DNA of 41,981 nt from Oscillospiraceae bacterium (GTDB lineage: Bacteria; Bacillota; Clostridia; Oscillospirales; Oscillospiraceae). The stretch covers positions 1-41,981 of the forward strand of contig JAGPMA010000015.1 of assembly GCA_018053145.1 (NCBI GenBank), given 5' to 3'. A model generated the notes under the pieces. The model made no database searches. It saw nothing but the letters and a program-made list of their open reading frames with translations, and was not told the DNA's origin. The position numbers and the translations under genes are program-made. Every line of letters begins with the position of its first letter. Position 1 is the first letter of the stretch. Shown here in pieces: positions 32,394 to 41,688 of the stretch.

Positions 32394-32473
32394 TTGATGA
32401 AATTTATGCTATTATTAAGGCAAGCATTGTGGCAGCTGCCGATGTCATGGCAATACCGAAGCAGGAGGCAAAC

Positions 32474-33253
32474 ATGGAGCAGGGAAATGTCCAGTCAATC
32501 GAACGCGCTTTTTCCATAATGGAAACTCTATCAAAATCGCCGGATGGTCTTCCTCTAATTTCGATAAGTGAGGCAGCCGGTCTTCATAAAAGCACAGTCC
32601 ACAGGATTCTTGCCTCGCTTTCTTCGCTGGGCTATGTCGAAAGAGCCGGAGCCACCGGAAACTACAAGCTTTCGCTGAAAATGTTCGAGGTTTCAAGCCG
32701 GATTGTCAATGGTCTTGATATATATTCTGCGGCAAAGCCCTGCCTTGACGAACTCAGCCGCCTTACGGATGAAGCTGTTCACCTCGTGGTTCGCGACGGC
32801 GACGAAATCATCTATGTCTACAAGGTCGATTTCAGCAGCGGTGGGGTCCGTATGTCGTCTCGTATCGGGCTGCGCGCTCCGATGTACTGCACGGCAGTCG
32901 GCAAATGCATACTGGCACATTTGCCTGAGAGCGAGCTTTGCGATATATGGGAAAGAAGCAAAATCATAGCGCTCACGGAAAACACTATTATAACTATGGA
33001 CGAGCTGAAAAAGGAGCTAGCGGATATAAGAAATTCCGGACACGCTTTTGATAACGAAGAAAACGAGCGCGGCGTCAAATGTATTGCTGCTCCTGTGTTT
33101 GATTATTCCGGAAGCATTGCCGGCGCGTTCAGCGTTTCTATTCCGACATCACGTATAAATGACCGAAAAATCGAAGAATTCATTCCTCATATACACAGTA
33201 CAATGGATAAGATATCGAGGGATATGGGATATCGTCCAGTTGATAAGCGATAA
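32474..33253 (+). CDS. IclR-family regulator, probably of uronate/KDG genes
   Basis: A 259-residue protein. The N-terminal winged helix (VQSIERAFSIMETLSKSPDGLPLISISEAAGLHKSTVHRILASL, LGYVERAGATGNYKLSL) is followed by the IclR effector domain with GLRAPMYCTAVGKCILAHL, ERGVKCIAAPVFDYSGSIAGAFSVSIP. GAGG five to nine bases before the ATG (32463-32469) supports the start. In proteobacteria the IclR member KdgR responds to KDG. Here the gene is divergent from kdgA-kdgK, so the same ligand is likely, though inferred. No transcriptional partner follows. Confidence 0.88.
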   Translation: MEQGNVQSIERAFSIMETLSKSPDGLPLISISEAAGLHKSTVHRILASLSSLGYVERAGATGNYKLSLKMFEVSSRIVNGLDIYSAAKPCLDELSRLTDEAVHLVVRDGDEIIYVYKVDFSSGGVRMSSRIGLRAPMYCTAVGKCILAHLPESELCDIWERSKIIALTENTIITMDELKKELADIRNSGHAFDNEENERGVKCIAAPVFDYSGSIAGAFSVSIPTSRINDRKIEEFIPHIHSTMDKISRDMGYRPVDKR

Positions 33254-34149: not shown

Positions 34150-34830
34150 ATATAGACAACCAGCTATCTATATGTAATATCGCCTACACAAACCTTATCC
34201 GGAGTTCCTGTTCTAAAGTTTTGCTTTAGTAGGTTTGGGCTGAATTGTCCGGTCTGCGCTCAGGCCCGCTGCATTTTCCTGTAGCCAAAGGTTCTTCGGC
34301 TCTCTGAAAACAGCGCTTATGTCTTCATAACCTACAGCTTTTCTTGCCAGCAGGTTTTCTACCGGCATTTCTGTCCGTCTCGCCATCTGTAATAATTGGA
34401 TTCCTTTATCTTCAAAATGGTAATCGGCCAACCTCGTTTATTCCGTTGGTCTTTTTTCTATACACATAATCTAACAGTTGTTTTATTAAACTCTCTAAAA
34501 AACACTTGACTTCCCTTGGAAGGTTTTTAAGATTTTTACCTTTTCCTTCTCGTCCTTCAGCTCTTTTTCTCTCTTTTTCAGTTCCTGCTCGAGCTTCTTC
34601 ATTTTTTGCGACATATCCAGACTTACGCCTACGCTTTTTTGCTGTTCTTTAAATTCCGAATAGTTTGTCAGCCCATTTGCTCTTCGGTGATCCCTGCCCC
34701 ACCGGCACACCGTGTTCGTGTCGATTCGTAATTCCTCGGCAACGCCGGTTGCTGACTTGCCACTCCGTAGAATATCCTCCGCTGTCTGCGTCCTCATTTC
34801 TTCGGAATATTTGCTGTTATTACTTGCCAT
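34150..34830 (-). mobile_element. Decayed IS3-family insertion sequence
   Basis: On the minus strand, orfA (34830-34495, 111 residues) has the IS3 transposase HTH (KYSEEMRTQTAEDILRSGKSATGVAEELRIDTNTVCRW) and a Lys/Glu-rich leucine-zipper region, ending abnormally in KILKTFQGKSSVF. Beyond it, remnants of orfB appear in shifting frames: ILKIKESNYYRWRDGQ, then ALFSESRRTFGYRKMQRA, then NFRTGTPDKVCVGDITY, the last carrying the first catalytic Asp of the DDE site. Stops interrupt all of them, and nothing after about 34150 matches, so the second Asp and Glu are missing. The element cannot transpose alone. Terminal inverted repeats were not found. Confidence 0.75.
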
Positions 34831-34961: not shown

Positions 34962-34990
34962 TTGAATTCCCCTTTGCCGGATGCTATAAT
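34962..34990 (+). promoter_or_regulatory. Promoter of the meta-cleavage operon regulator
   Basis: TTGAAT (34962-34967), a 17-base spacer and a perfect TATAAT (34985-34990) lie 45 bp upstream of the IclR-type gene. TGGGAACA and GAATTCCCC on either side of the -35 box form a loose dyad that could be an operator. Confidence 0.7.
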
Positions 34991-35034: not shown

Positions 35035-35817
35035 ACGGACAAGAAAACAAAAGAGACCCCGCATGTGACTTCGGTTGAGCGGGCGTTTCTCCTTGTGGAG
35101 GAGCTTGCGCGGGAACCGCGTGAATACACGCTTACAGAGCTTTCAAAAGCCCTCGGCTGGCCCAAAAGCACGGTTCACGGTCTGCTTTCCACTTTGGTAC
35201 AGTATCGCTACGCCGAGCAGTCAGAGGAGACGGGGCACTATAAGCTGGGCATACATTTTTTTGAACTGGGCGTCCGCGTCGGCAGGATGTGGGATATTCG
35301 CTCAATTGCAATGCCGCATATGCAGCGGCTCAATAATACTTTCGGCGAAATGGTGCAGCTTGGCACCGAGGATCGCGGCCAAGTGCTGTATCTTGAAAAG
35401 CTCGATTCCTTACACCTTATCCGAATTGTCTCAGAAATCGGCGGCAGGCTGCCCATCCACTGTACGGGGCTGGGAAAAGCCATTCTTGCCAATATGCCGG
35501 AGCCGAAATTCAAACAAATTGTTCGGGATCGCGGTCTAAAGGGCTTCACTTCAAATACTATAACGACGCTGCCGGAGCTGACCAAGGAGCTTGCCCATAT
35601 ACGTGAGCGTGGCTATGCCATTGACGACGGCGAGATTATGGAGGGGCTGCGCTGTATTGCCGCCCCGATATTCGATGGCAGGGGGCAGGTCAGGTATGCC
35701 ATCAGCGTTTCGGGCATGATGGCCAACATGGAGGGCAGTCAGCTCAATCATATGAAAAAGAGCATTGTTGCCGCAGCGGAAGCAATCTCAAAGGATATTG
35801 CCAAAATAAGCATTTAA
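35035..35817 (+). CDS. IclR-family regulator of the catechol operon
   Basis: A protein of about 260 residues: winged helix (TSVERAFLLVEELAREPREYTLTELSKALGWPKSTVHGLLSTL) and effector domain (GGRLPIHCTGLGKAILANM, EGLRCIAAPIFDGRGQVRYAISVSG). The start is odd. The only strong ribosome site, GGAGGTG (35021-35027), lies 7 bases before ACG at 35035, from which the reading (T/M)DKKTKETPHVTSVERA would be a normal IclR N-terminus. The first standard start is GTG 35065, which has no clear site. Either ACG is used or an ATG has mutated. Position upstream of, and in line with, the ring-cleavage genes makes it the likely activator or repressor of the operon. Confidence 0.85.
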   Translation, partial: TDKKTKETPHVTSVERAFLLVEELAREPREYTLTELSKALGWPKSTVHGLLSTLVQYRYAEQSEETGHYKLGIHFFELGVRVGRMWDIRSIAMPHMQRLNNTFGEMVQLGTEDRGQVLYLEKLDSLHLIRIVSEIGGRLPIHCTGLGKAILANMPEPKFKQIVRDRGLKGFTSNTITTLPELTKELAHIRERGYAIDDGEIMEGLRCIAAPIFDGRGQVRYAISVSGMMANMEGSQLNHMKKSIVAAAEAISKDIAKISI

Positions 35818-35856
35818 CGGCGGCTTCGCCGAAATACCAATAAAGGAGTGCTGACA

Positions 35857-36699
35857 ATGAGCGCAAGACCGGAAATCGCAAAATCTGTTAAAACCGGAGA
35901 CTTTAATACAAATTATCACGATGTGGGAGAAGGTTTCCCGCTTATGCTGCTGCACGGCTCCGGGCCGGGCGTGTCGGCTTGGGCGAACTGGAACAAGCTT
36001 TTTCCTCTTCTTTCCCCGAATCATCGTATTATCGCCCCCGACCTTGTAGGCTTCGGTTACACCGACAGACCCGAGGACATGGTTTTCAATATGGACGCGT
36101 GGATAAAGCAGGCGGTCGATTTGCTTGACGCGCTTGGAATCACGCAGACGGATATCGTCGGCAATTCCTTTGGCGGTGCGCTGGCGCTGGCGCTGGCCGT
36201 TAAATTTCCCAAGCGCATACGCAAAATTGTTCTGATGGGCAGCATGGGTGTGACCTTCCCTCTCAGCTTCGGCCTTGACAGGGTCTGGGGCTACACCCCG
36301 TCCCTGACAAACATGCAGGAGCTAATTGGCATCTTTGCCTACAACCGCGCAATGATGCCGCCGGAGCTCGCGCAGGCGCGCTACGATGGAAGCATCCAAC
36401 CCGGCTTTCAGGAGAGCTTTTCCTCCATGTTCCCCGCACCGCGTCAGGCAGGCGTAGAGGCTATGGCACAGTATGAAATATATCTCAGAGAAATCCGTCA
36501 CCAAACGCTGATTGTCCACGGACGCGAGGATAGGGTTATCCCACTTGAAACCTCGATGAAGCTCATACAGCTCATCGAAAACGCCCAGCTCCACGTCTTC
36601 GGCAAATGCGGTCACTGGACGCAGATTGAGCGCACAGAGGAGTTTGCGGCACTGGTACACAGCTTCCTCATGCTTGACCCGCCCTATACAAAGAATTAG
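35857..36699 (+). CDS. Meta-cleavage product hydrolase (2-hydroxymuconic semialdehyde hydrolase type)
   Basis: A protein of about 280 residues of the alpha/beta-hydrolase fold. The C-C hydrolase of extradiol pathways (XylF/DmpD/TodF type) splits the yellow ring-cleavage product into 2-hydroxypenta-2,4-dienoate and a carboxylic acid. The oxyanion region is LLHGSGPGVSAWANW, the nucleophile is Ser104 in GNSFGG, and Asp224 (HGREDRVIP) and His252 (GKCGHWTQIE) complete the triad. The motif HGSGPGVSAWANW is specific to this subfamily. ATG 35857 has AAAGGAG 8 bases upstream. It is the first enzyme of the operon, 39 bases past the regulator stop. Confidence 0.9.
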   Translation: MSARPEIAKSVKTGDFNTNYHDVGEGFPLMLLHGSGPGVSAWANWNKLFPLLSPNHRIIAPDLVGFGYTDRPEDMVFNMDAWIKQAVDLLDALGITQTDIVGNSFGGALALALAVKFPKRIRKIVLMGSMGVTFPLSFGLDRVWGYTPSLTNMQELIGIFAYNRAMMPPELAQARYDGSIQPGFQESFSSMFPAPRQAGVEAMAQYEIYLREIRHQTLIVHGREDRVIPLETSMKLIQLIENAQLHVFGKCGHWTQIERTEEFAALVHSFLMLDPPYTKN

Positions 36700-36709
36700 G
36701 GCATTGCGT

Positions 36710-37489
36710 ATGGACAAATCCGAAATCAACACCGCTGCGCAGCAGCTCTATTCCGCCCAGCAGACGCGGATACCGATTTTCCCCTTGACTTATACGAATC
36801 CCGATATCACGGTTGCCGAGGCCTATGCGATACAGCTGGAGAACATTGAAAGGCGCCTCAAAGCCGGTGATGTTATTTCCGGCAAGAAAATCGGCCTGAC
36901 CTCCCCCGGAATCCAGAAACAGCTCGGCGTAAGCGAGCCGGACTACGGACACCTGTTTGCCTCCATGTCTTATGCGCGTGAGATTCCGGCAAACACTCTA
37001 CTTCAGCCAAAGATTGAGGCCGAAATCGCCTTCGTTCTGAAAGAGGATTTGACGGGAGGAAATGTTACGGCGGCTGATGTCCGCCGTGCAACAAGCTACA
37101 TCGTCGCGGCCTTTGAAATTGTTGACAGCCGCATTGCCGACTGGCGCATCAAGCTTCCGGACACCGTTGCGGACAACGCTTCATCCGGCTGCTATGTTCT
37201 GGGAAAAGAGCACATCCCCGTCGGCGAGCTTGATCTTGGCAAAATCACGATGCGGATGATAAAAAACGGCGGGGAGCCGGTTGGCGGTGGCGAAGGCTCC
37301 GCCGTGATGGGAGATCCTTGTGTCTCCGTGGCTTGGCTGGCAAACTGCCTGTACCGCTACGGCGTAAGCCTCAAGAAGGATGAGGTCATTCTCTCCGGCG
37401 CGTTTTCCGCCGCGCATATTGCGGTCAAGGGCGATGTTTTCCGTGCGGACTTCTCGGTTCTGGGCAGCGTCGAAGCTTTCTTTATATAA
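36710..37489 (+). CDS. 2-Oxopent-4-enoate (2-hydroxypentadienoate) hydratase
   Basis: A protein of about 259 residues of the fumarylacetoacetase-like fold (MhpD/DmpE/XylJ). It adds water to 2-hydroxypenta-2,4-dienoate to give 4-hydroxy-2-oxovalerate. Visible are SGKKIGLTSPGIQKQLGVSEPDYGHLF, the metal-binding Glu-x-Glu in KIEAEIAFVLK with a later Glu in AAFEIVDSRIADWRIKLPDTVADNASSG, and GEGSAVMGDPCVSVAWLAN, all in the usual order. ATG 36710 comes 10 bases after the hydrolase stop; the ribosome site (AGGG) is weak, so coupling to the previous gene is likely. The 127-base gap to the next gene contains no gene; it holds a short TAGCC/GGCTA dyad near 37500. Confidence 0.9.
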   Translation: MDKSEINTAAQQLYSAQQTRIPIFPLTYTNPDITVAEAYAIQLENIERRLKAGDVISGKKIGLTSPGIQKQLGVSEPDYGHLFASMSYAREIPANTLLQPKIEAEIAFVLKEDLTGGNVTAADVRRATSYIVAAFEIVDSRIADWRIKLPDTVADNASSGCYVLGKEHIPVGELDLGKITMRMIKNGGEPVGGGEGSAVMGDPCVSVAWLANCLYRYGVSLKKDEVILSGAFSAAHIAVKGDVFRADFSVLGSVEAFFI

Positions 37490-37619
37490 CACTTAATAGC
37501 CGCTGAGGCTATCTTACGAACATATTAATTCAGGAGAAAAGCTTCCCGTACAGTCTTTTTTGAAAAGGATACGCGGGAGGGTGTGGTAGTCATACGCTTT
37601 TTTAGAAAGGACGAGATTT

Positions 37620-38501
37620 ATGGATAAGCTCAAGGTTGCCGTCATCGGTCCCGGCAACATCGGCAGCGATCTAATGTATAAGATAAAGCGCAGCAAATAT
37701 CTCGAAATGTCGCTGATGGCAGGTATAGTTGAATCCGAAGGGCTGCGCCGCGCCGCGGCGGAGGGCATACCCGTTTCCATTGAGGGCGTGAAGGCTGTTT
37801 GCGAAAGGTCTGATATTAAGCTTGCGTTCGACGCCACAAGCGCCTCGGCGCATATGAAAAACGCCCCGCTTCTTGCGGCGGCAGGTATAATCGCTGTTGA
37901 CCTCACACCGGCGGCAATCGGCCCCTACTGTGTGCCGGCAGTAAATCTCGACCGGCTCAGCACAGCGCCGAACATCAATATGGTCACCTGCGGCGGGCAG
38001 GCCACAATACCGATTGTCCACGCCATTGACCGCGTTGCGGGGGCAGCCTATGCCGAAATCGTCGCGGCGATTTCCTCGAAAAGTGCGGGGCCGGGCACAC
38101 GGGCTAACATGGATGAGTTTACGGAAACGACAAGCAAGGCCATTGAGGTCGTGGGCGGGGCTGATAAGGGTAAGGCCATCATCGTGCTCAATCCCGCCGA
38201 TCCTCCGATTCTCATGACCGACACGGTCATTGTCCGTGTAAAGCACCCCGAGGTTGGCTTTGAGGCCATACGTAATTCCATTCTTCAGATGGCGGAGCAG
38301 GTTCAGGGCTATGTCCCTGGTTACCGTCTGCGTGTACCTCCGCAGATGGAAGGCGACAAGGTTACGGTAATCGTTCAGGTCGAAGGACAGGGCGACTTTT
38401 TGCCCAAATATTCCGGCAATCTGGATATCATGAATGCGGCTGCCGTTGCGGCGGCTGAAAAAATTGCCCGTCGGCTATTGGAGGGAGGTGCGTTGCAATG
38501 A
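37620..38501 (+). CDS. Acetaldehyde dehydrogenase (acylating)
   Basis: This 293-residue DmpF/MhpF-type enzyme oxidises acetaldehyde to acetyl-CoA with NAD and CoA, in a channelling complex with the aldolase that follows. It has the Rossmann motif [17 protein letters not shown], the catalytic Cys124 in [12 protein letters not shown], and the family blocks [21 protein letters not shown] and [22 protein letters not shown] precedes the ATG. The stop overlaps the start of the aldolase by 4 bases, matching the obligate pairing seen in Pseudomonas clusters. Confidence 0.94.
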
Positions 38502-39514
38502 GTACTCAGCACGAAATCACATTTGTTGATACAACTCTGCGTGACGGCAGTCACGCTGTTCGGCACAGCTTTACGGTTCCGCAGGTTCGTGAAATTGCAT
38601 CCCGGCTCGACAAATGCGGCGTTCCCATTATCGAGGTGTCCCACGGAGACGGGCTGGGCGGTTCGAGCTTCACCTACGGCTTTTCAAAAACGGATCCGTT
38701 TGAGCTCATCGCGGCGGCGGCGGAAGAAATTAAAAACGGTAAGCTTGCGGTGCTACTTCTGCCCGGCATAGGTACCATTGAGGATCTAAAGCGTGCCAAG
38801 GACTGTGGGGCGCAGGTCGTCCGTGTCGCGACGCATGCGACGGAGGCGGATGTGAGTGCCGAGCATATCGGCGCCGCGAAATCCATGGGCATGATGGCAG
38901 TCGGATTTCTGATGATGGCACATATGCTCGATGCCGAGGGACTGGCACAGCAGGCAAAAAAAATGGAGTCCTACGGCGCTGACTATATCAATCTTGCCGA
39001 TTCCGCAGGAGCCCTCCTTCCTGAGCAGGTTCGGGAGCGCATTGAGGCCGTACGCGCCGCTGTGAGTATTCCGGTCGGCTTCCATGCTCACAACAACCTT
39101 GGTCTTGCGGTTGCCAATACGCTTGCCGCGATTGACGGGGGCGTAAGCTATGTCGACGGCACTCTGCGCGGACTGGGCGCGGGCGCGGGCAACACGCAGC
39201 TCGAAGTGCTTGCCGGCGTACTCAATCGTAAGGGCATTGCAACTGGACTGGATTTTTACGGACTGATTGACGCCGCCGAACAGGCGGTAGCGCCGCTGAT
39301 GTTCCGTCCGCAGGTGATTGACGGCGGGTCTCTGATGCTCGGGTATGCGGGTGTTTACTCCAGCTTTTTGCTGCACGTCTATGCCGCTGCCGAAAAATAT
39401 CATCTGGAGTCGCGCGACATTCTGGTAGAGGTCGGCAGGCGCAAAATGGTTGGTGGGCAGGAGGATCTCATCCTTGACGTTGCGTATGAGCTAAGCCATG
39501 AAAAACAGGTCTGA
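38498..39514 (+). CDS. 4-Hydroxy-2-oxovalerate aldolase
   Basis: This 338-residue DmpG/MhpE-type class II aldolase splits 4-hydroxy-2-oxovalerate into pyruvate and acetaldehyde, passing acetaldehyde by tunnel to the dehydrogenase. Mn-binding and catalytic parts are visible: [17 protein letters not shown] (Arg and Asp), [28 protein letters not shown], and the His-x-His metal ligands in [16 protein letters not shown]. The C-terminal communication domain with [20 protein letters not shown] is present, so the protein is full length. It overlaps the gene before by 4 bases and the ferredoxin gene by 17. Confidence 0.95.
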
Positions 39515-39815
39515 AACCTATCGTATCAGTCTGCCGGACGGCACGTGCTTTCCCTGCCTTTTCGACGAAAGCGTTCTGGAAGCGATGGGTCGTTTCGGAC
39601 GTGGGCCTATCATCAGCGGCTGCTTCGGCGGAGGTTGCGGTGTCTGCGCGATGCGGGTCGTCTCCGGCGAATATGTCAGTTTTAAGCCGATGAGCCGCGC
39701 GCATGTAAGCGCCGGACAGGAGCAGCAGGGGCTTGCGCTTCTGTGCTGCATCAAACCACTCAGTGATCTAACCCTCGGTTTCGCGGGGGAGAAACAAATA
39801 ACAAACACTTATTAG
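39498..39815 (+). CDS. XylT-like 2Fe-2S ferredoxin
   Basis: A 105-residue plant-type ferredoxin with cysteine spacing C-x4-C-x2-C (SGCFGGGCGVCAM) and a distant fourth Cys in LLCCIKP. XylT/DmpQ/NahT-type ferredoxins reduce the inactivated ferric iron of catechol 2,3-dioxygenase back to ferrous. They are encoded directly beside the dioxygenase, exactly as here (the dioxygenase gene starts 11 bases after the stop). Length and the GFGGGCGxC-like loop match that role. Its start lies inside the end of the aldolase gene, so expression is coupled. Confidence 0.88.
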   Translation: MKNRSETYRISLPDGTCFPCLFDESVLEAMGRFGRGPIISGCFGGGCGVCAMRVVSGEYVSFKPMSRAHVSAGQEQQGLALLCCIKPLSDLTLGFAGEKQITNTY

Positions 39816-39826
39816 GAGGAACTGAT

Positions 39827-40750
39827 ATGGCAATGAATCAAACCTTACGCCCCGGTCTCATCCAGCTTCGCGTTCTGGATTTGGACAAAACCCTTGATTT
39901 CTATAAGAATGTTCTCGGGCTGGACGAGGTGTGCAGAACGGCTGATGGCCGCGTGTGTCTAAAGACCTACGATGAATTCGATCATCACTCCGTGACTCTG
40001 CGTCTTGCAGACGAAGCTGGGCTGGACTTTGTTTCTTTCAAGGTCGCGTCCTCAGCGGAACTTGAAAACATGGTCAAGGCAACGGAGGCCTTCGGCTACA
40101 AGGTGTCCGAGGTTCCCGCTGGCGAGCAGCCCGGCTATGGCAAGCGCTATCGCTTTACGATTAGCACCGGACACATTTTCGAGCTTTACTGCGAAGTCGC
40201 GCTGGCCGCCAAGGGTCCCGGCCTCCGCAACCCTGATATCTGGAATGAGCCTCCCCGTGGCATGGGCGTAATTCGCCTCGACCACTTCCTGCTCTACGGC
40301 CCGAACATTGCAGAGGCCGAGCGCTACTGCACAGAGGTCATGCACATGTTTGTTCCTGAGGTCTGCAATCTTCCCGACGGTAACCGCCTCGCCACCTGGA
40401 TTACCAGCTCGAACAAGCCCCATGATCTGGCTTTTGTCGAATATCCGAAGCCCGGAAAAATCCACCACGTTGGCTTCCTGCTTCAGGATTGGGATCATGT
40501 CGGAAAGGCGGCTGACCTTATCGCCATCAATCGTCTTAAAAAGGATGTCGGCCCCACCCGCCACGCCATTACCCGCGGACAAACCATCTATTTCTGGGAG
40601 CCGTCCGGCAACCGCATCGAGGTCTATGCGGGCGGCTATACGGCCTATCCCGACAACCCCCAGCGCGTCTGGGATTCCGATCAACTCGGTCGCGGACTGT
40701 TCTACTATGAGGGCGTCGTTATCCCCAGCTTCCTTGAGATAGTTACTTAA
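39827..40750 (+). CDS. Catechol 2,3-dioxygenase (extradiol, type I)
   Basis: This 307-residue two-domain vicinal-oxygen-chelate enzyme inserts both atoms of O2 next to the catechol hydroxyls to give 2-hydroxymuconic semialdehyde. The Fe(II) ligands are all present at the positions known from XylE: His153 (RLDHFLLYG), His214 (KIHHVGF) and Glu265 (NRIEVYAGG). The second-shell residues are also there: His199 (NKPHDLAF), His246 (GPTRHAITRG) and Tyr255 (TIYFWEPSGN). It should therefore be an active O2-dependent enzyme. AGGAGG lies 8 bases before the ATG. It is the last gene of the operon, before strong hairpins. The surrounding gene content is otherwise that of an anaerobe. Confidence 0.95.
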   Translation: MAMNQTLRPGLIQLRVLDLDKTLDFYKNVLGLDEVCRTADGRVCLKTYDEFDHHSVTLRLADEAGLDFVSFKVASSAELENMVKATEAFGYKVSEVPAGEQPGYGKRYRFTISTGHIFELYCEVALAAKGPGLRNPDIWNEPPRGMGVIRLDHFLLYGPNIAEAERYCTEVMHMFVPEVCNLPDGNRLATWITSSNKPHDLAFVEYPKPGKIHHVGFLLQDWDHVGKAADLIAINRLKKDVGPTRHAITRGQTIYFWEPSGNRIEVYAGGYTAYPDNPQRVWDSDQLGRGLFYYEGVVIPSFLEIVT

Positions 40751-40803: not shown

Positions 40804-40878
40804 GAAGGAACTAAACGGTTCCTTCACAGCTTACAGACAAAAAGTGTCCCGTGGGTAGCATGGGACACTTTTTGTACA
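40804..40878 (+). terminator. Tandem hairpins ending the catechol operon
   Basis: First an 8-bp stem, GAAGGAAC / GTTCCTTC (40804-40811, 40818-40825). Then a perfect 13-bp stem, CAAAAAGTGTCCC / GGGACACTTTTTG (40838-40850, 40862-40874), whose 3' arm contains the T-run. The second is a strong bidirectional terminator. Confidence 0.85.
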
Positions 40879-40926: not shown

Positions 40927-41090
40927 TTAAGAAATAATTAACTTCATTAGAGTCCCGACCATTTTTGCGGCCCGAGCGCGGGCGACGCTCGACTGCGGGT
41001 CGAAGCTGCCGTCGGTATTACCTGAAATGATGCTGTTATTCACAGCCCATTGGATGGGTGCCTGTGCCCAGCTTGAAATGCTGCCGTACG
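40927..41090 (-). pseudogene. C-terminal fragment of an S-layer homology (SLH) protein
   Basis: On the minus strand from about 41090 the frame reads YGSISSWAQAPIQWAVNNSI, then an SGNTDGSFDPQSSVARARAA stretch ending KMVGTLMKLIIS with stop TAA 40929-40927. This is one SLH repeat (W-A-x-x-x-I-x-W-A, G-x-x-x-G-x-x-D/F-x-P-x-x-x-x-x-R-A). Such repeats anchor proteins to the Gram-positive cell wall and usually sit three in a row at a terminus. Everything upstream is missing: at about 41090 the sequence turns into a chemotaxis receptor on the opposite strand. So only the last repeat survives. Confidence 0.75.
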
Positions 41091-41688
41091 CTAATAAAGC
41101 AAGCATTATGAGTATTGAAACTTCGAAAGAAGTAAAAGAAAGTAATGATTATATGATACAAATGCTTGGAGCGATGGATGAGATCACTGAGACATCTGAG
41201 AAAATAAATAGAATAATAAAAGCAATTGACGACATAGCGTTCCAAACTAATATTCTTTCTCTTAATGCGGCTGTTGAAGCTGCCCGTGCTGGTGCATCAG
41301 GCAAAGTTTTGCAGTTGTTGCAAGTGAGGTTCGCAATCTGGCTCAACGTTCTGCTGAAGCAGCAAAGAATACTACTGAGCTTATAGAGAACATAGTAGTG
41401 GCTATTAACAATGGCAAAACGATCGCATATGCCACAGCAAAATCCCTTCAACTTGTTGATGAAAAAACGAGATTCGTTTGTGATGAGATTATAAAAATCG
41501 CTGAGGCTTCAACAAATCAAGCTTACGTAACGGAGCAAGTCCTGGTAGGTATTGAACAGGTCTCAACCGTTACACAGACAAACTCAGCAACAGCAGAAGA
41601 GAGTGCGGCCGCGGCAGAAGAACTTGCTGCTCAAGCAGCACTTCTATCTGATATGACCCATCAATACGAGCTTTTCGATATAAATTAA
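41091..41688 (+). pseudogene. Methyl-accepting chemotaxis protein, truncated and frameshifted
   Basis: The receptor signalling tip is unmistakable: INRIIKAIDDIAFQTNILSL followed by NAAVEAARAGASGK. At 41303-41306 the reading frame slips. Family sequence demands GKGFAVVASEVRNLAQRSAE, and these residues appear after a single-base deletion (GGCAAAG-TTTTGCA lacks one G), continuing as KNTTELIENIVVAINNGKTI and ending ATAEESAAAAEELAAQAALLSDMTHQYELFDIN at 41688. The sensor, membrane and HAMP parts are absent; the sequence upstream of about 41090 belongs to an inverted SLH fragment. It is therefore non-functional, unless the missing base is a sequencing error and the 5' part was lost at an assembly join. 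Confidence 0.85.

What the first reader, a model, noticed from the sequence alone, without database searches (positions are those of the whole stretch)
35035..40750. Complete O2-dependent catechol meta-cleavage operon in an anaerobe-like Firmicute
Regulator, hydrolase, hydratase, acylating aldehyde dehydrogenase, aldolase, XylT-like ferredoxin and catechol 2,3-dioxygenase are contiguous, overlapping and intact. The dioxygenase keeps every iron ligand and second-shell residue at XylE numbering. The neighbourhood (flavodoxin, 2-hydroxyacyl-CoA dehydratase-type protein, CooT, IscR locus) points to an anaerobic lifestyle where O2 is scarce. No ring hydroxylase is present, so catechol would come from outside or from demethylation of methoxylated aromatics. 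The operon could serve micro-oxic niches, O2 scavenging or catechol detoxification.
Basis: partly seen in the sequence, partly recalled or inferred. Interest (0 to 1): 0.85.

Follow-up and report, generated by a model that had tools for sequence, protein, structure and literature searches.

The report
Oxygen-using catechol operon in an anaerobe
A bacterium predicted to be a strict anaerobe carries seven intact adjacent genes, likely acquired from another organism, that are predicted to split catechol with oxygen and ferment the pieces; much the same gene set is found in DNA assigned to four bacterial phyla, and a case in a termite-gut spirochete was published in 2014, so it is striking but not unprecedented.

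Summary
In detail: 35065-40750 carries seven intact genes (IclR regulator, alpha/beta hydrolase, hydratase, acylating acetaldehyde dehydrogenase, aldolase, [2Fe-2S] ferredoxin, catechol 2,3-dioxygenase), iron ligands kept. The host bin is Oscillospiraceae by RpoB, with two pyruvate:ferredoxin oxidoreductases and rubrerythrins and no match to cytochrome bd, haem-copper oxidase or Rieske ring hydroxylase. The operon is likely an insert: 55% G+C against 46% and 42% beside it, next to a transposase remnant, without a match in the 10 other genus genomes searched, and its dioxygenase groups with Fusibacter paucivorans. It is no isolated oddity: 65 public loci assigned to Bacillota, Spirochaetota, Synergistota and Actinomycetota form one well-supported dioxygenase clade, mostly with the same enzyme order. 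None of the 65 carries the NAD-dependent 2-hydroxymuconic semialdehyde dehydrogenase in the stretch fetched. Best reading: an O2-consuming, formate-releasing route from catechol to pyruvate and acetyl-CoA, passed laterally among anaerobes. The kind was reported for Treponema primitia (Lucey and Leadbetter 2014; title seen only), so this is a new member of a known kind; the breadth and the dehydrogenase-free layout are the interesting part.

The parts
35065..35817 (+). IclR-family transcriptional regulator, first gene of the operon
   Evidence: Pfam HTH_IclR and IclR_C; all seven genes in this order in 21 of 44 clade loci with at least 4.7 kb upstream
35848..36699 (+). alpha/beta hydrolase, predicted to hydrolyse 2-hydroxymuconic semialdehyde to formate and 2-hydroxypenta-2,4-dienoate
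   Evidence: 54.7% identical over 274 residues to the meta-operon hydrolase of pDTG1; NCBIfam hits HsaD and BphD below cut-off; Abhydrolase_1; motifs GNSFGG, GREDRVIP, GHW present
36704..37489 (+). 2-oxopent-4-enoate hydratase (DmpE-like); start uncertain (36626, 36704 or 36710)
   Evidence: TIGR03220 best hit, 275.6 bits against cut-off 408.8; FAA_hydrolase
37620..38501 (+). acylating acetaldehyde dehydrogenase (DmpF-like)
   Evidence: TIGR03215 433.9 bits, over cut-off 282.25
38498..39514 (+). 4-hydroxy-2-oxovalerate aldolase (DmpG-like) with communication domain
   Evidence: TIGR03217 503.3 bits, over cut-off 286; DmpG_comm
39498..39815 (+). XylT-like plant-type [2Fe-2S] ferredoxin, predicted to re-reduce the dioxygenase iron
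   Evidence: Fer2; C-x4-C-x2-C-xn-C motif, present in 56 of 57 ferredoxins looked at, window included; directly upstream of the dioxygenase in 56 of 63 clade loci
39827..40750 (+). catechol 2,3-dioxygenase (type I extradiol)
   Evidence: TIGR03211 357.4 bits, over cut-off 320.2; iron ligands conserved
34962..34990 (+). promoter-like site 75 nt before the regulator gene (10 of 12 matches, TG before the second hexamer); consensus match only
   Evidence: 7 such sites found in the region against 4.8 (sd 2.4) in shuffles, so weak
34495..34830 (-). transposase remnant beside the operon
   Evidence: HTH_Tnp_1 at E 4.8e-5, 23.9 bits against cut-off 24.1; PHROG transposase at 2.9e-7
41027..41688 (+). 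frame-broken methyl-accepting chemotaxis protein remnant, host-like DNA on the far side of the operon
   Evidence: MCPsignal in two frames (the second piece is under Pfam's cut-off); 72% DNA identity to the host's own contig C39, matches in 8 of 11 genus genomes, own included

Best explanation
This is an intact, likely laterally acquired catechol meta-cleavage operon that is predicted to let an Oscillospiraceae bacterium, predicted to be anaerobic, use traces of O2 as a co-substrate to open catechol and ferment the fragments. Inferred steps: catechol 2,3-dioxygenase adds O2 to give 2-hydroxymuconic semialdehyde. The hydrolase releases formate, avoiding the NADH-making dehydrogenase branch of aerobes. 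Hydratase and aldolase give pyruvate and acetaldehyde. The acylating dehydrogenase makes acetyl-CoA and one NADH, and pyruvate enters the host's pyruvate:ferredoxin oxidoreductase. The XylT-like ferredoxin would re-reduce iron that O2 has oxidised. Net prediction: catechol + O2 + 2 H2O + CoA + NAD+ gives formate + pyruvate + acetyl-CoA + NADH, so the cell gains carbon and energy and removes O2 and a toxic phenol in one process. The IclR protein would control it in response to substrate. Catechol would come from outside.
For: Gene families and intact frames; the hydrolase is 54.7% identical to that of the pDTG1 meta operon. Six named active-site residues are kept in the window, five of them in 67 of 67 clade rows. 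Selection: in all 24 gene pairs compared pN is below pS, from 0.094 against 0.779 (dioxygenase, Fusibacter) to 0.349 against 0.747 (ferredoxin, L009). Six-enzyme order kept in 36 of 44 clade loci with at least 4.7 kb upstream. Distances of the other operon genes correlate with those of the dioxygenase (Mantel r 0.57 to 0.77, n 30 to 57, 0 of 999 permutations as high). Semialdehyde dehydrogenase: 0 of 65 clade loci against 5 of 14 other loci, none in the window with controls that match, no match in the host genome. Host. Insertion: G+C 0.552, above all 398 overlapping windows of equal length from host DNA (maximum 0.515); 0 of 10 other genus genomes match; 6 of 394 order genomes match, own included; grouping with the rows titled or classed Oscillospiraceae is disfavoured (p-AU 1.75e-41 for six rows, 0.0059 for three; groups chosen after the tree was seen).
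Against: No activity, expression or substrate is shown. Hydrolase and hydratase fall below curated equivalog cut-offs, so the true substrate could be a substituted catechol. Lacrimispora and Hungatella loci (L011, L012, L076) have the pathway without the ferredoxin, and Fusibacter (L006) has dioxygenase, ferredoxin and hydrolase without the lower genes in the stretch fetched, so neither the ferredoxin step nor full fermentation is universal. The absence of the dehydrogenase is judged on stretches of 3.5 to 20.9 kb; only 34 of 65 loci hold 5 kb or more on both sides of the dioxygenase. The own-genome search for it had no positive control. The host is a 95% complete bin, so oxidases could lie in the missing part; catalase, flavodiiron proteins and other oxidases were not searched.
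Confidence: 0.72

Rival explanations
1. The operon mainly protects: it burns catechol to remove O2 (or removes toxic catechol), and carbon gain is incidental.
For: Fusibacter paucivorans keeps dioxygenase, ferredoxin and hydrolase without the lower pathway beside them; the host has no match to cytochrome bd or COX1.
Against: The lower pathway to acetyl-CoA is kept in order in 36 of 44 loci and evolves with pN below pS; the host already has rubrerythrins.
Confidence: 0.35
2. The contig is chimeric or misbinned and the operon does not belong to this anaerobe.
For: G+C jump at the operon; no match in the 10 other genus genomes; the IclR gene of the left flank (32429-33253) is also not found in them at E 1e-60; the operon's tetranucleotide correlation with host DNA is lower (0.54, on a shorter stretch).
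Against: G+C falls back to host level on both sides; the right flank matches the host's own chemotaxis genes; two 20-kb pieces of the left flank correlate 0.66 with five other host stretches, as these do with each other (0.655 to 0.697), against 0.08 to 0.47 for eight stretches of more distant taxa. Isolates Fusibacter paucivorans and Lacrimispora xylanisolvens carry relatives on contigs of 304 and 229 kb.
Confidence: 0.06
3. The true substrate is a substituted catechol (one whose ring-fission product is a ketone, from lignin or diet), not catechol itself.
For: Only the hydrolytic branch is present, which in aerobes mainly serves 3-substituted catechols (recalled); the best NCBIfam hits of the hydrolase are HsaD and BphD, below cut-off.
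Against: The dioxygenase is over the cut-off of the catechol 2,3-dioxygenase model and far below those of the biphenyl and steroid enzymes.
Confidence: 0.3
4. The operon is a decaying leftover of a recent transfer and does nothing.
For: Transposase and chemotaxis remnants beside it.
Against: All seven genes are intact and differ from relatives with pN below pS; selection since the transfer itself could not be measured.
Confidence: 0.05

Closest known systems
Treponema primitia catechol 2,3-dioxygenase and meta-cleavage genes (Lucey and Leadbetter 2014, Mol Ecol, doi 10.1111/mec.12598)
   Same: Meta-cleavage genes in an organism held to be anaerobic (by the paper's title); rows titled Treponema or Spirochaetaceae fall in the same dioxygenase clade as the window.
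   Different: Here the host is an Oscillospiraceae bacterium and the operon looks like an insert. The paper is not held; only its title was seen in citing papers, and the T. primitia sequence was not retrieved, so identity of layout is untested.
Meta operons of Pseudomonas plasmids, e.g. pDTG1
   Same: Ferredoxin directly before the dioxygenase; hydrolase, hydratase, acylating dehydrogenase and aldolase present; hydrolase 54.7% identical.
   Different: pDTG1 also carries 2-hydroxymuconic semialdehyde dehydrogenase, decarboxylase DmpH and, upstream, salicylate hydroxylase. The window has no match to the dehydrogenase or salicylate hydroxylase; DmpH matches only the hydratase gene, its relative. 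Dioxygenases are 42.6% identical. Gene order differs and the adjacent regulator is IclR.
Operon of Fusibacter paucivorans DSM 12116 (L006)
   Same: Nearest named dioxygenase, 85-86% identical, with IclR, hydrolase and ferredoxin beside it.
   Different: Hydratase, acylating dehydrogenase and aldolase are not in the 20.9 kb fetched.

Membership tests
Catechol 2,3-dioxygenase (TIGR03211, type I extradiol) | Score over curated cut-off | tested here: met
   357.4 against 320.2 bits
Catechol 2,3-dioxygenase (TIGR03211, type I extradiol) | 2-His-1-carboxylate iron ligands and second-shell His/Tyr | tested here: met
   H153, H214, E265, H199, H246, Y255 in the window; (roles recalled)
Catechol 2,3-dioxygenase (TIGR03211, type I extradiol) | Ring cleavage of catechol with O2 | not testable with these tools
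   Needs assay
Meta-cleavage lower pathway (hydratase, aldolase, acylating dehydrogenase) | Aldolase and acylating dehydrogenase over cut-off, paired | tested here: met
   TIGR03217 and TIGR03215
Meta-cleavage lower pathway (hydratase, aldolase, acylating dehydrogenase) | Hydratase and hydrolase over curated equivalog cut-off | tested here: not met
   Hydratase 275.6 of 408.8; hydrolase below the cut-offs shown; both match the right families and the pDTG1 hydrolase at 54.7%, so subfamily function stays open
Full aerobic dmp/xyl/nah meta operon | 2-hydroxymuconic semialdehyde dehydrogenase branch | tested here: not met
   No match in the window, controls match; 0 of 65 clade loci as fetched; no match in host genome, no control
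XylT-like ferredoxin | Plant-type 2Fe-2S ferredoxin directly before the dioxygenase | tested here: met
   Fer2, cysteine motif, 56 of 63 loci
XylT-like ferredoxin | Reactivates oxidised dioxygenase | not testable with these tools
   Needs assay
Treponema primitia type system | Same operon and dioxygenase clade as T. primitia | not tested
   T. primitia sequence not retrieved; other Treponema rows fall in the clade

The most novel reading that the evidence does not exclude
A mobile 'oxygenase fermentation' module: one dioxygenase clade, usually tied to its own ferredoxin and a formate-releasing, dehydrogenase-free lower pathway, circulates among strict anaerobes of at least four phyla. It lets organisms without respiratory oxidases use O2 as a substrate: they ferment aromatic rings at oxic-anoxic edges while acting as O2 sinks for their communities.
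Probability: 0.4. Interest if true: 0.72.

Novelty: new member of a known kind. Interest (0 to 1): 0.5.

Why it matters
Aromatic ring opening in anaerobes is usually thought to go through benzoyl-CoA or other reductive routes (recalled). A conserved O2-using ring-cleavage operon shared by fermenters, spirochetes and synergistetes would mean that a guild of 'strict' anaerobes is built to exploit trace O2 with lignin-type phenols, passing formate and acetate to partners. Culture-collection strains with relatives of the operon (Lacrimispora xylanisolvens DSM 3808, Fusibacter paucivorans DSM 12116) make this directly testable.

Tried and rejected
Chimera or contamination: tested by G+C steps, tetranucleotides and flank matches and largely rejected. 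Insertion-site repeats around the operon: none convincing; a 27-nt pair at 81% (33654 and 38281, the second inside the operon), shorter pairs, and one 17-nt inverted repeat at 40837-40875. Promoter- and terminator-like sites in the region are not more frequent than in shuffles by a clear margin (7 against 4.8, 6 against 7.9). An empty site in relatives was not found: the left-flank IclR gene has no match at E 1e-60 in the 10 other genus genomes. Recurrent extra genes beside the operon: seven protein clusters occur in at least 4 loci and none in more than 10 of 65 (GGDEF-TPR, ABC ATPase, aminotransferase, AMP-binding, and in four spirochete loci a guanylate cyclase, a FecR-domain protein and one without family); judged unrelated. 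Salicylate hydroxylase and Rieske homologues: 0 of 65 clade loci and none in the window. Rival that the clade's active site has lost O2 chemistry: made unlikely by residue conservation. Structure prediction was not run, because family membership was already decided by sequence.

Paper searches: searches returned no papers; some searches returned listings (46: 12 of 19 listed), and passages of six papers were read. No whole paper was read. The statement that I found no report of this operon in Oscillospiraceae rests (three papers listed; titles and abstract openings seen, none on this subject).
Full report
What is there. The stretch 35065-40750 on the + strand holds seven intact genes in one direction: IclR regulator, alpha/beta hydrolase, hydratase, acylating acetaldehyde dehydrogenase, 4-hydroxy-2-oxovalerate aldolase, ferredoxin, catechol 2,3-dioxygenase. 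Dioxygenase, acetaldehyde dehydrogenase and aldolase score over NCBI's curated cut-offs; hydratase and hydrolase match the right families but stay below the equivalog cut-offs shown. The hydrolase is 54.7% identical to that of the pDTG1 meta operon. Two junctions overlap (4 and 17 nt); other gaps are 4 to 130 nt. The best matches among solved structures are catechol 2,3-dioxygenases 3HPV and 1MPY, and the alignment keeps H153, H214 and E265 at 1MPY numbering.

Who carries it. The window is the whole contig C74 of a 2.25-Mb, 106-contig bin, 95% complete and 1.2% contaminated. Its RpoB has unnamed hits at up to 97%; the named hits at 84-93% are all Oscillospiraceae, and those named at 81-82% include Ruminococcaceae, Candidatus Scatomorpha and Clostridiales (120 best of 8000 scored). 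The genome gives no match to cytochrome bd subunit I or COX1, while these families ring in 10 and 8 of 14 control genomes. It has two full-length pyruvate:ferredoxin oxidoreductases and rubrerythrins, and no Rieske ring hydroxylase (the family rings in 4 of 14 controls). Other ring hydroxylases, catalase and flavodiiron proteins were not searched. The picture is that of a fermenting strict anaerobe.

Does the operon belong there. G+C is 0.462 left of the operon (1-34500), 0.552 in it, 0.424 to its right. None of 398 overlapping windows of the operon's length in host DNA (stretches of five other contigs plus the left flank) reaches its G+C; the maximum is 0.515. Two 20-kb pieces of the left flank agree in tetranucleotides with five other host stretches (mean r 0.66; host among themselves 0.655-0.697), unlike eight stretches of more distant taxa (0.08-0.47). 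Of four same-genus stretches three are at 0.61-0.65 and one at 0.46; the operon itself gives 0.54 on its shorter length. The right flank is a frame-broken chemotaxis gene with matches in 8 of 11 genus genomes, own included, and 72% identity to the host's contig C39. Against this, the left-flank IclR gene (32429-33253) was found in no other genus genome at E 1e-60. A transposase remnant lies just upstream of the operon. The dioxygenase has no match at E 1e-20 in the 10 other genomes of the genus (78-100% complete) or in the other 48 relatives searched, and 6 of 394 genomes of the order match at E 1e-60, own included. One of these, G165, holds all seven genes in the same order at 53-82% identity. 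An insertion by lateral transfer is the simplest reading; the donor is unknown.

The wider clade. A protein search returned 645 relatives; the 120 listed are all at least 71% identical, whereas the best of 311 plasmid records reaches 49% and the 20 listed come from genera that are aerobic by recall. A scan of species-representative genomes kept the best 80 of 160 confirmed stretches, 79 distinct loci. Of these, 65 (L006-L069 and L076) are 64% or more identical. In a quick maximum-likelihood tree of 83 rows, 64 of the 65 (L050 left out for a broken frame), two second copies and the window form one side of a branch with SH-aLRT 99 and length 0.71: Bacillota 39, Spirochaetota 23, Synergistota 3, Actinomycetota 1 and the window (quick tree, no bootstrap). 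Phylum labels come from record titles, mostly of metagenome bins; the single Actinomycetota row is a bin. Named isolates include Fusibacter paucivorans DSM 12116, Lacrimispora xylanisolvens DSM 3808 and L. defluvii. The window groups with F. paucivorans and L007 (support 99). Holding it with the rows classed Oscillospiraceae is disfavoured (p-AU 1.75e-41 for six rows, 0.0059 for three). These groups were chosen after the tree was seen, and the six rows are themselves scattered in the tree, which inflates the first value.

Conserved anatomy. The ferredoxin gene lies directly before the dioxygenase in 56 of 63 clade loci with at least 450 bp upstream; it was not found in L011, L012, L015, L029, L030, L052 and L076. 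Of 44 loci with at least 4.7 kb upstream, 36 keep the six enzymes in the window's order and 21 also the IclR gene; 14 of the 15 that lack only IclR are titled spirochetes (titles). Three Synergistaceae loci have a rearranged order. Counted without regard to truncation, the 65 loci hold IclR in 30, hydrolase in 51, hydratase in 53, acylating dehydrogenase in 56, aldolase in 61 and ferredoxin in 56. The Mantel correlations (0.57-0.77) show shared history with the dioxygenase. Synonymous change is near saturation and pN is below pS in all 24 pairs compared, most clearly for the dioxygenase and least for ferredoxin and regulator, so selection keeps the proteins.

The missing branch. Aerobic relatives carry an NAD-dependent 2-hydroxymuconic semialdehyde dehydrogenase near the dioxygenase (pDTG1 and Sphingobium AntQ-1). 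It was found in 0 of 65 clade loci and in 5 of the 14 other loci (L077, L080-L083); L078, L079, L084 and the six Thiodiazotropha-type loci L070-L075 also lack it in the stretch fetched. The stretches are 3.5 to 20.9 kb long and 34 of 65 hold 5 kb or more on both sides of the dioxygenase. The window has none, with controls that match, and the host genome gave no match, without positive control. From this I infer a formate-releasing route: one ring gives formate, pyruvate, acetyl-CoA and one NADH, which suits a fermenter because it avoids a second NADH. This stoichiometry follows from the known pathway and is not shown here.

How it likely works. Shown: genes, residues, order, selection, host gene content. 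Inferred: substrate, O2 use, formate release, ferredoxin-driven re-reduction of iron (known for XylT of the TOL plasmid; recalled), control by IclR, catechol supplied from outside. The choice between feeding on catechol and removing O2 is not forced: the same reaction does both, and F. paucivorans, with only the upper part nearby, suggests that removal alone can be enough.

What is known. Lucey and Leadbetter (2014) reported catechol 2,3-dioxygenase and meta-cleavage genes in 'anaerobic' Treponema primitia. I saw the title in reference lists; the paper is not held. Two papers cite it for degradation of lignin phenolics by spirochetes (passages). So the kind is known. What I did not find in print, (open-licence library only, listings), is its presence in Oscillospiraceae, its spread over four phyla, or the consistent lack of the dehydrogenase; a paper outside this library may well hold some of it.

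Verdict. Its interest lies in a testable, clade-wide strategy for using O2 without respiring it.

Noticed in passing
L039:5038-10924, L043:6915-10924: Two Treponema loci carry a second catechol 2,3-dioxygenase copy within the same cluster; L041 carries a second dehydrogenase-aldolase pair downstream.
   Followed up: partly
L006:7694-10924: Fusibacter paucivorans has IclR, hydrolase, ferredoxin and dioxygenase but no hydratase, acylating dehydrogenase or aldolase in the 20.9 kb fetched.
   Followed up: partly
L011, L012, L076: Lacrimispora and Hungatella operons show no ferredoxin gene; only about 85 nt separate the aldolase and dioxygenase matches.
   Followed up: partly
L062, L063, L065, L067, L014, L034 downstream: A gene of one cluster, whose representative L062:11139-12800 is an AMP-binding (acyl-CoA synthetase-like) protein, lies downstream of the operon in six loci.
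   Followed up: no
L050:10001-10924: The dioxygenase of Candidatus Mediterraneibacter pullicola is split into two pieces in different frames; left as it is.
   Followed up: no
window:41027-41688: Frame-broken chemotaxis receptor remnant next to the operon.
   Followed up: partly
window:33594-33950: A 118-aa open frame between the host genes and the operon with no Pfam or PHROG match.
   Followed up: no
window:40837-40875: A 17-nt inverted repeat 87 nt after the dioxygenase stop codon; not reported as terminator-like by the scan.
   Followed up: partly
L070-L075: Thiodiazotropha and related symbiont genomes have a separate dioxygenase branch at 56-57% identity; of the other operon genes only a ferredoxin was found nearby, in L072-L075.
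   Followed up: no
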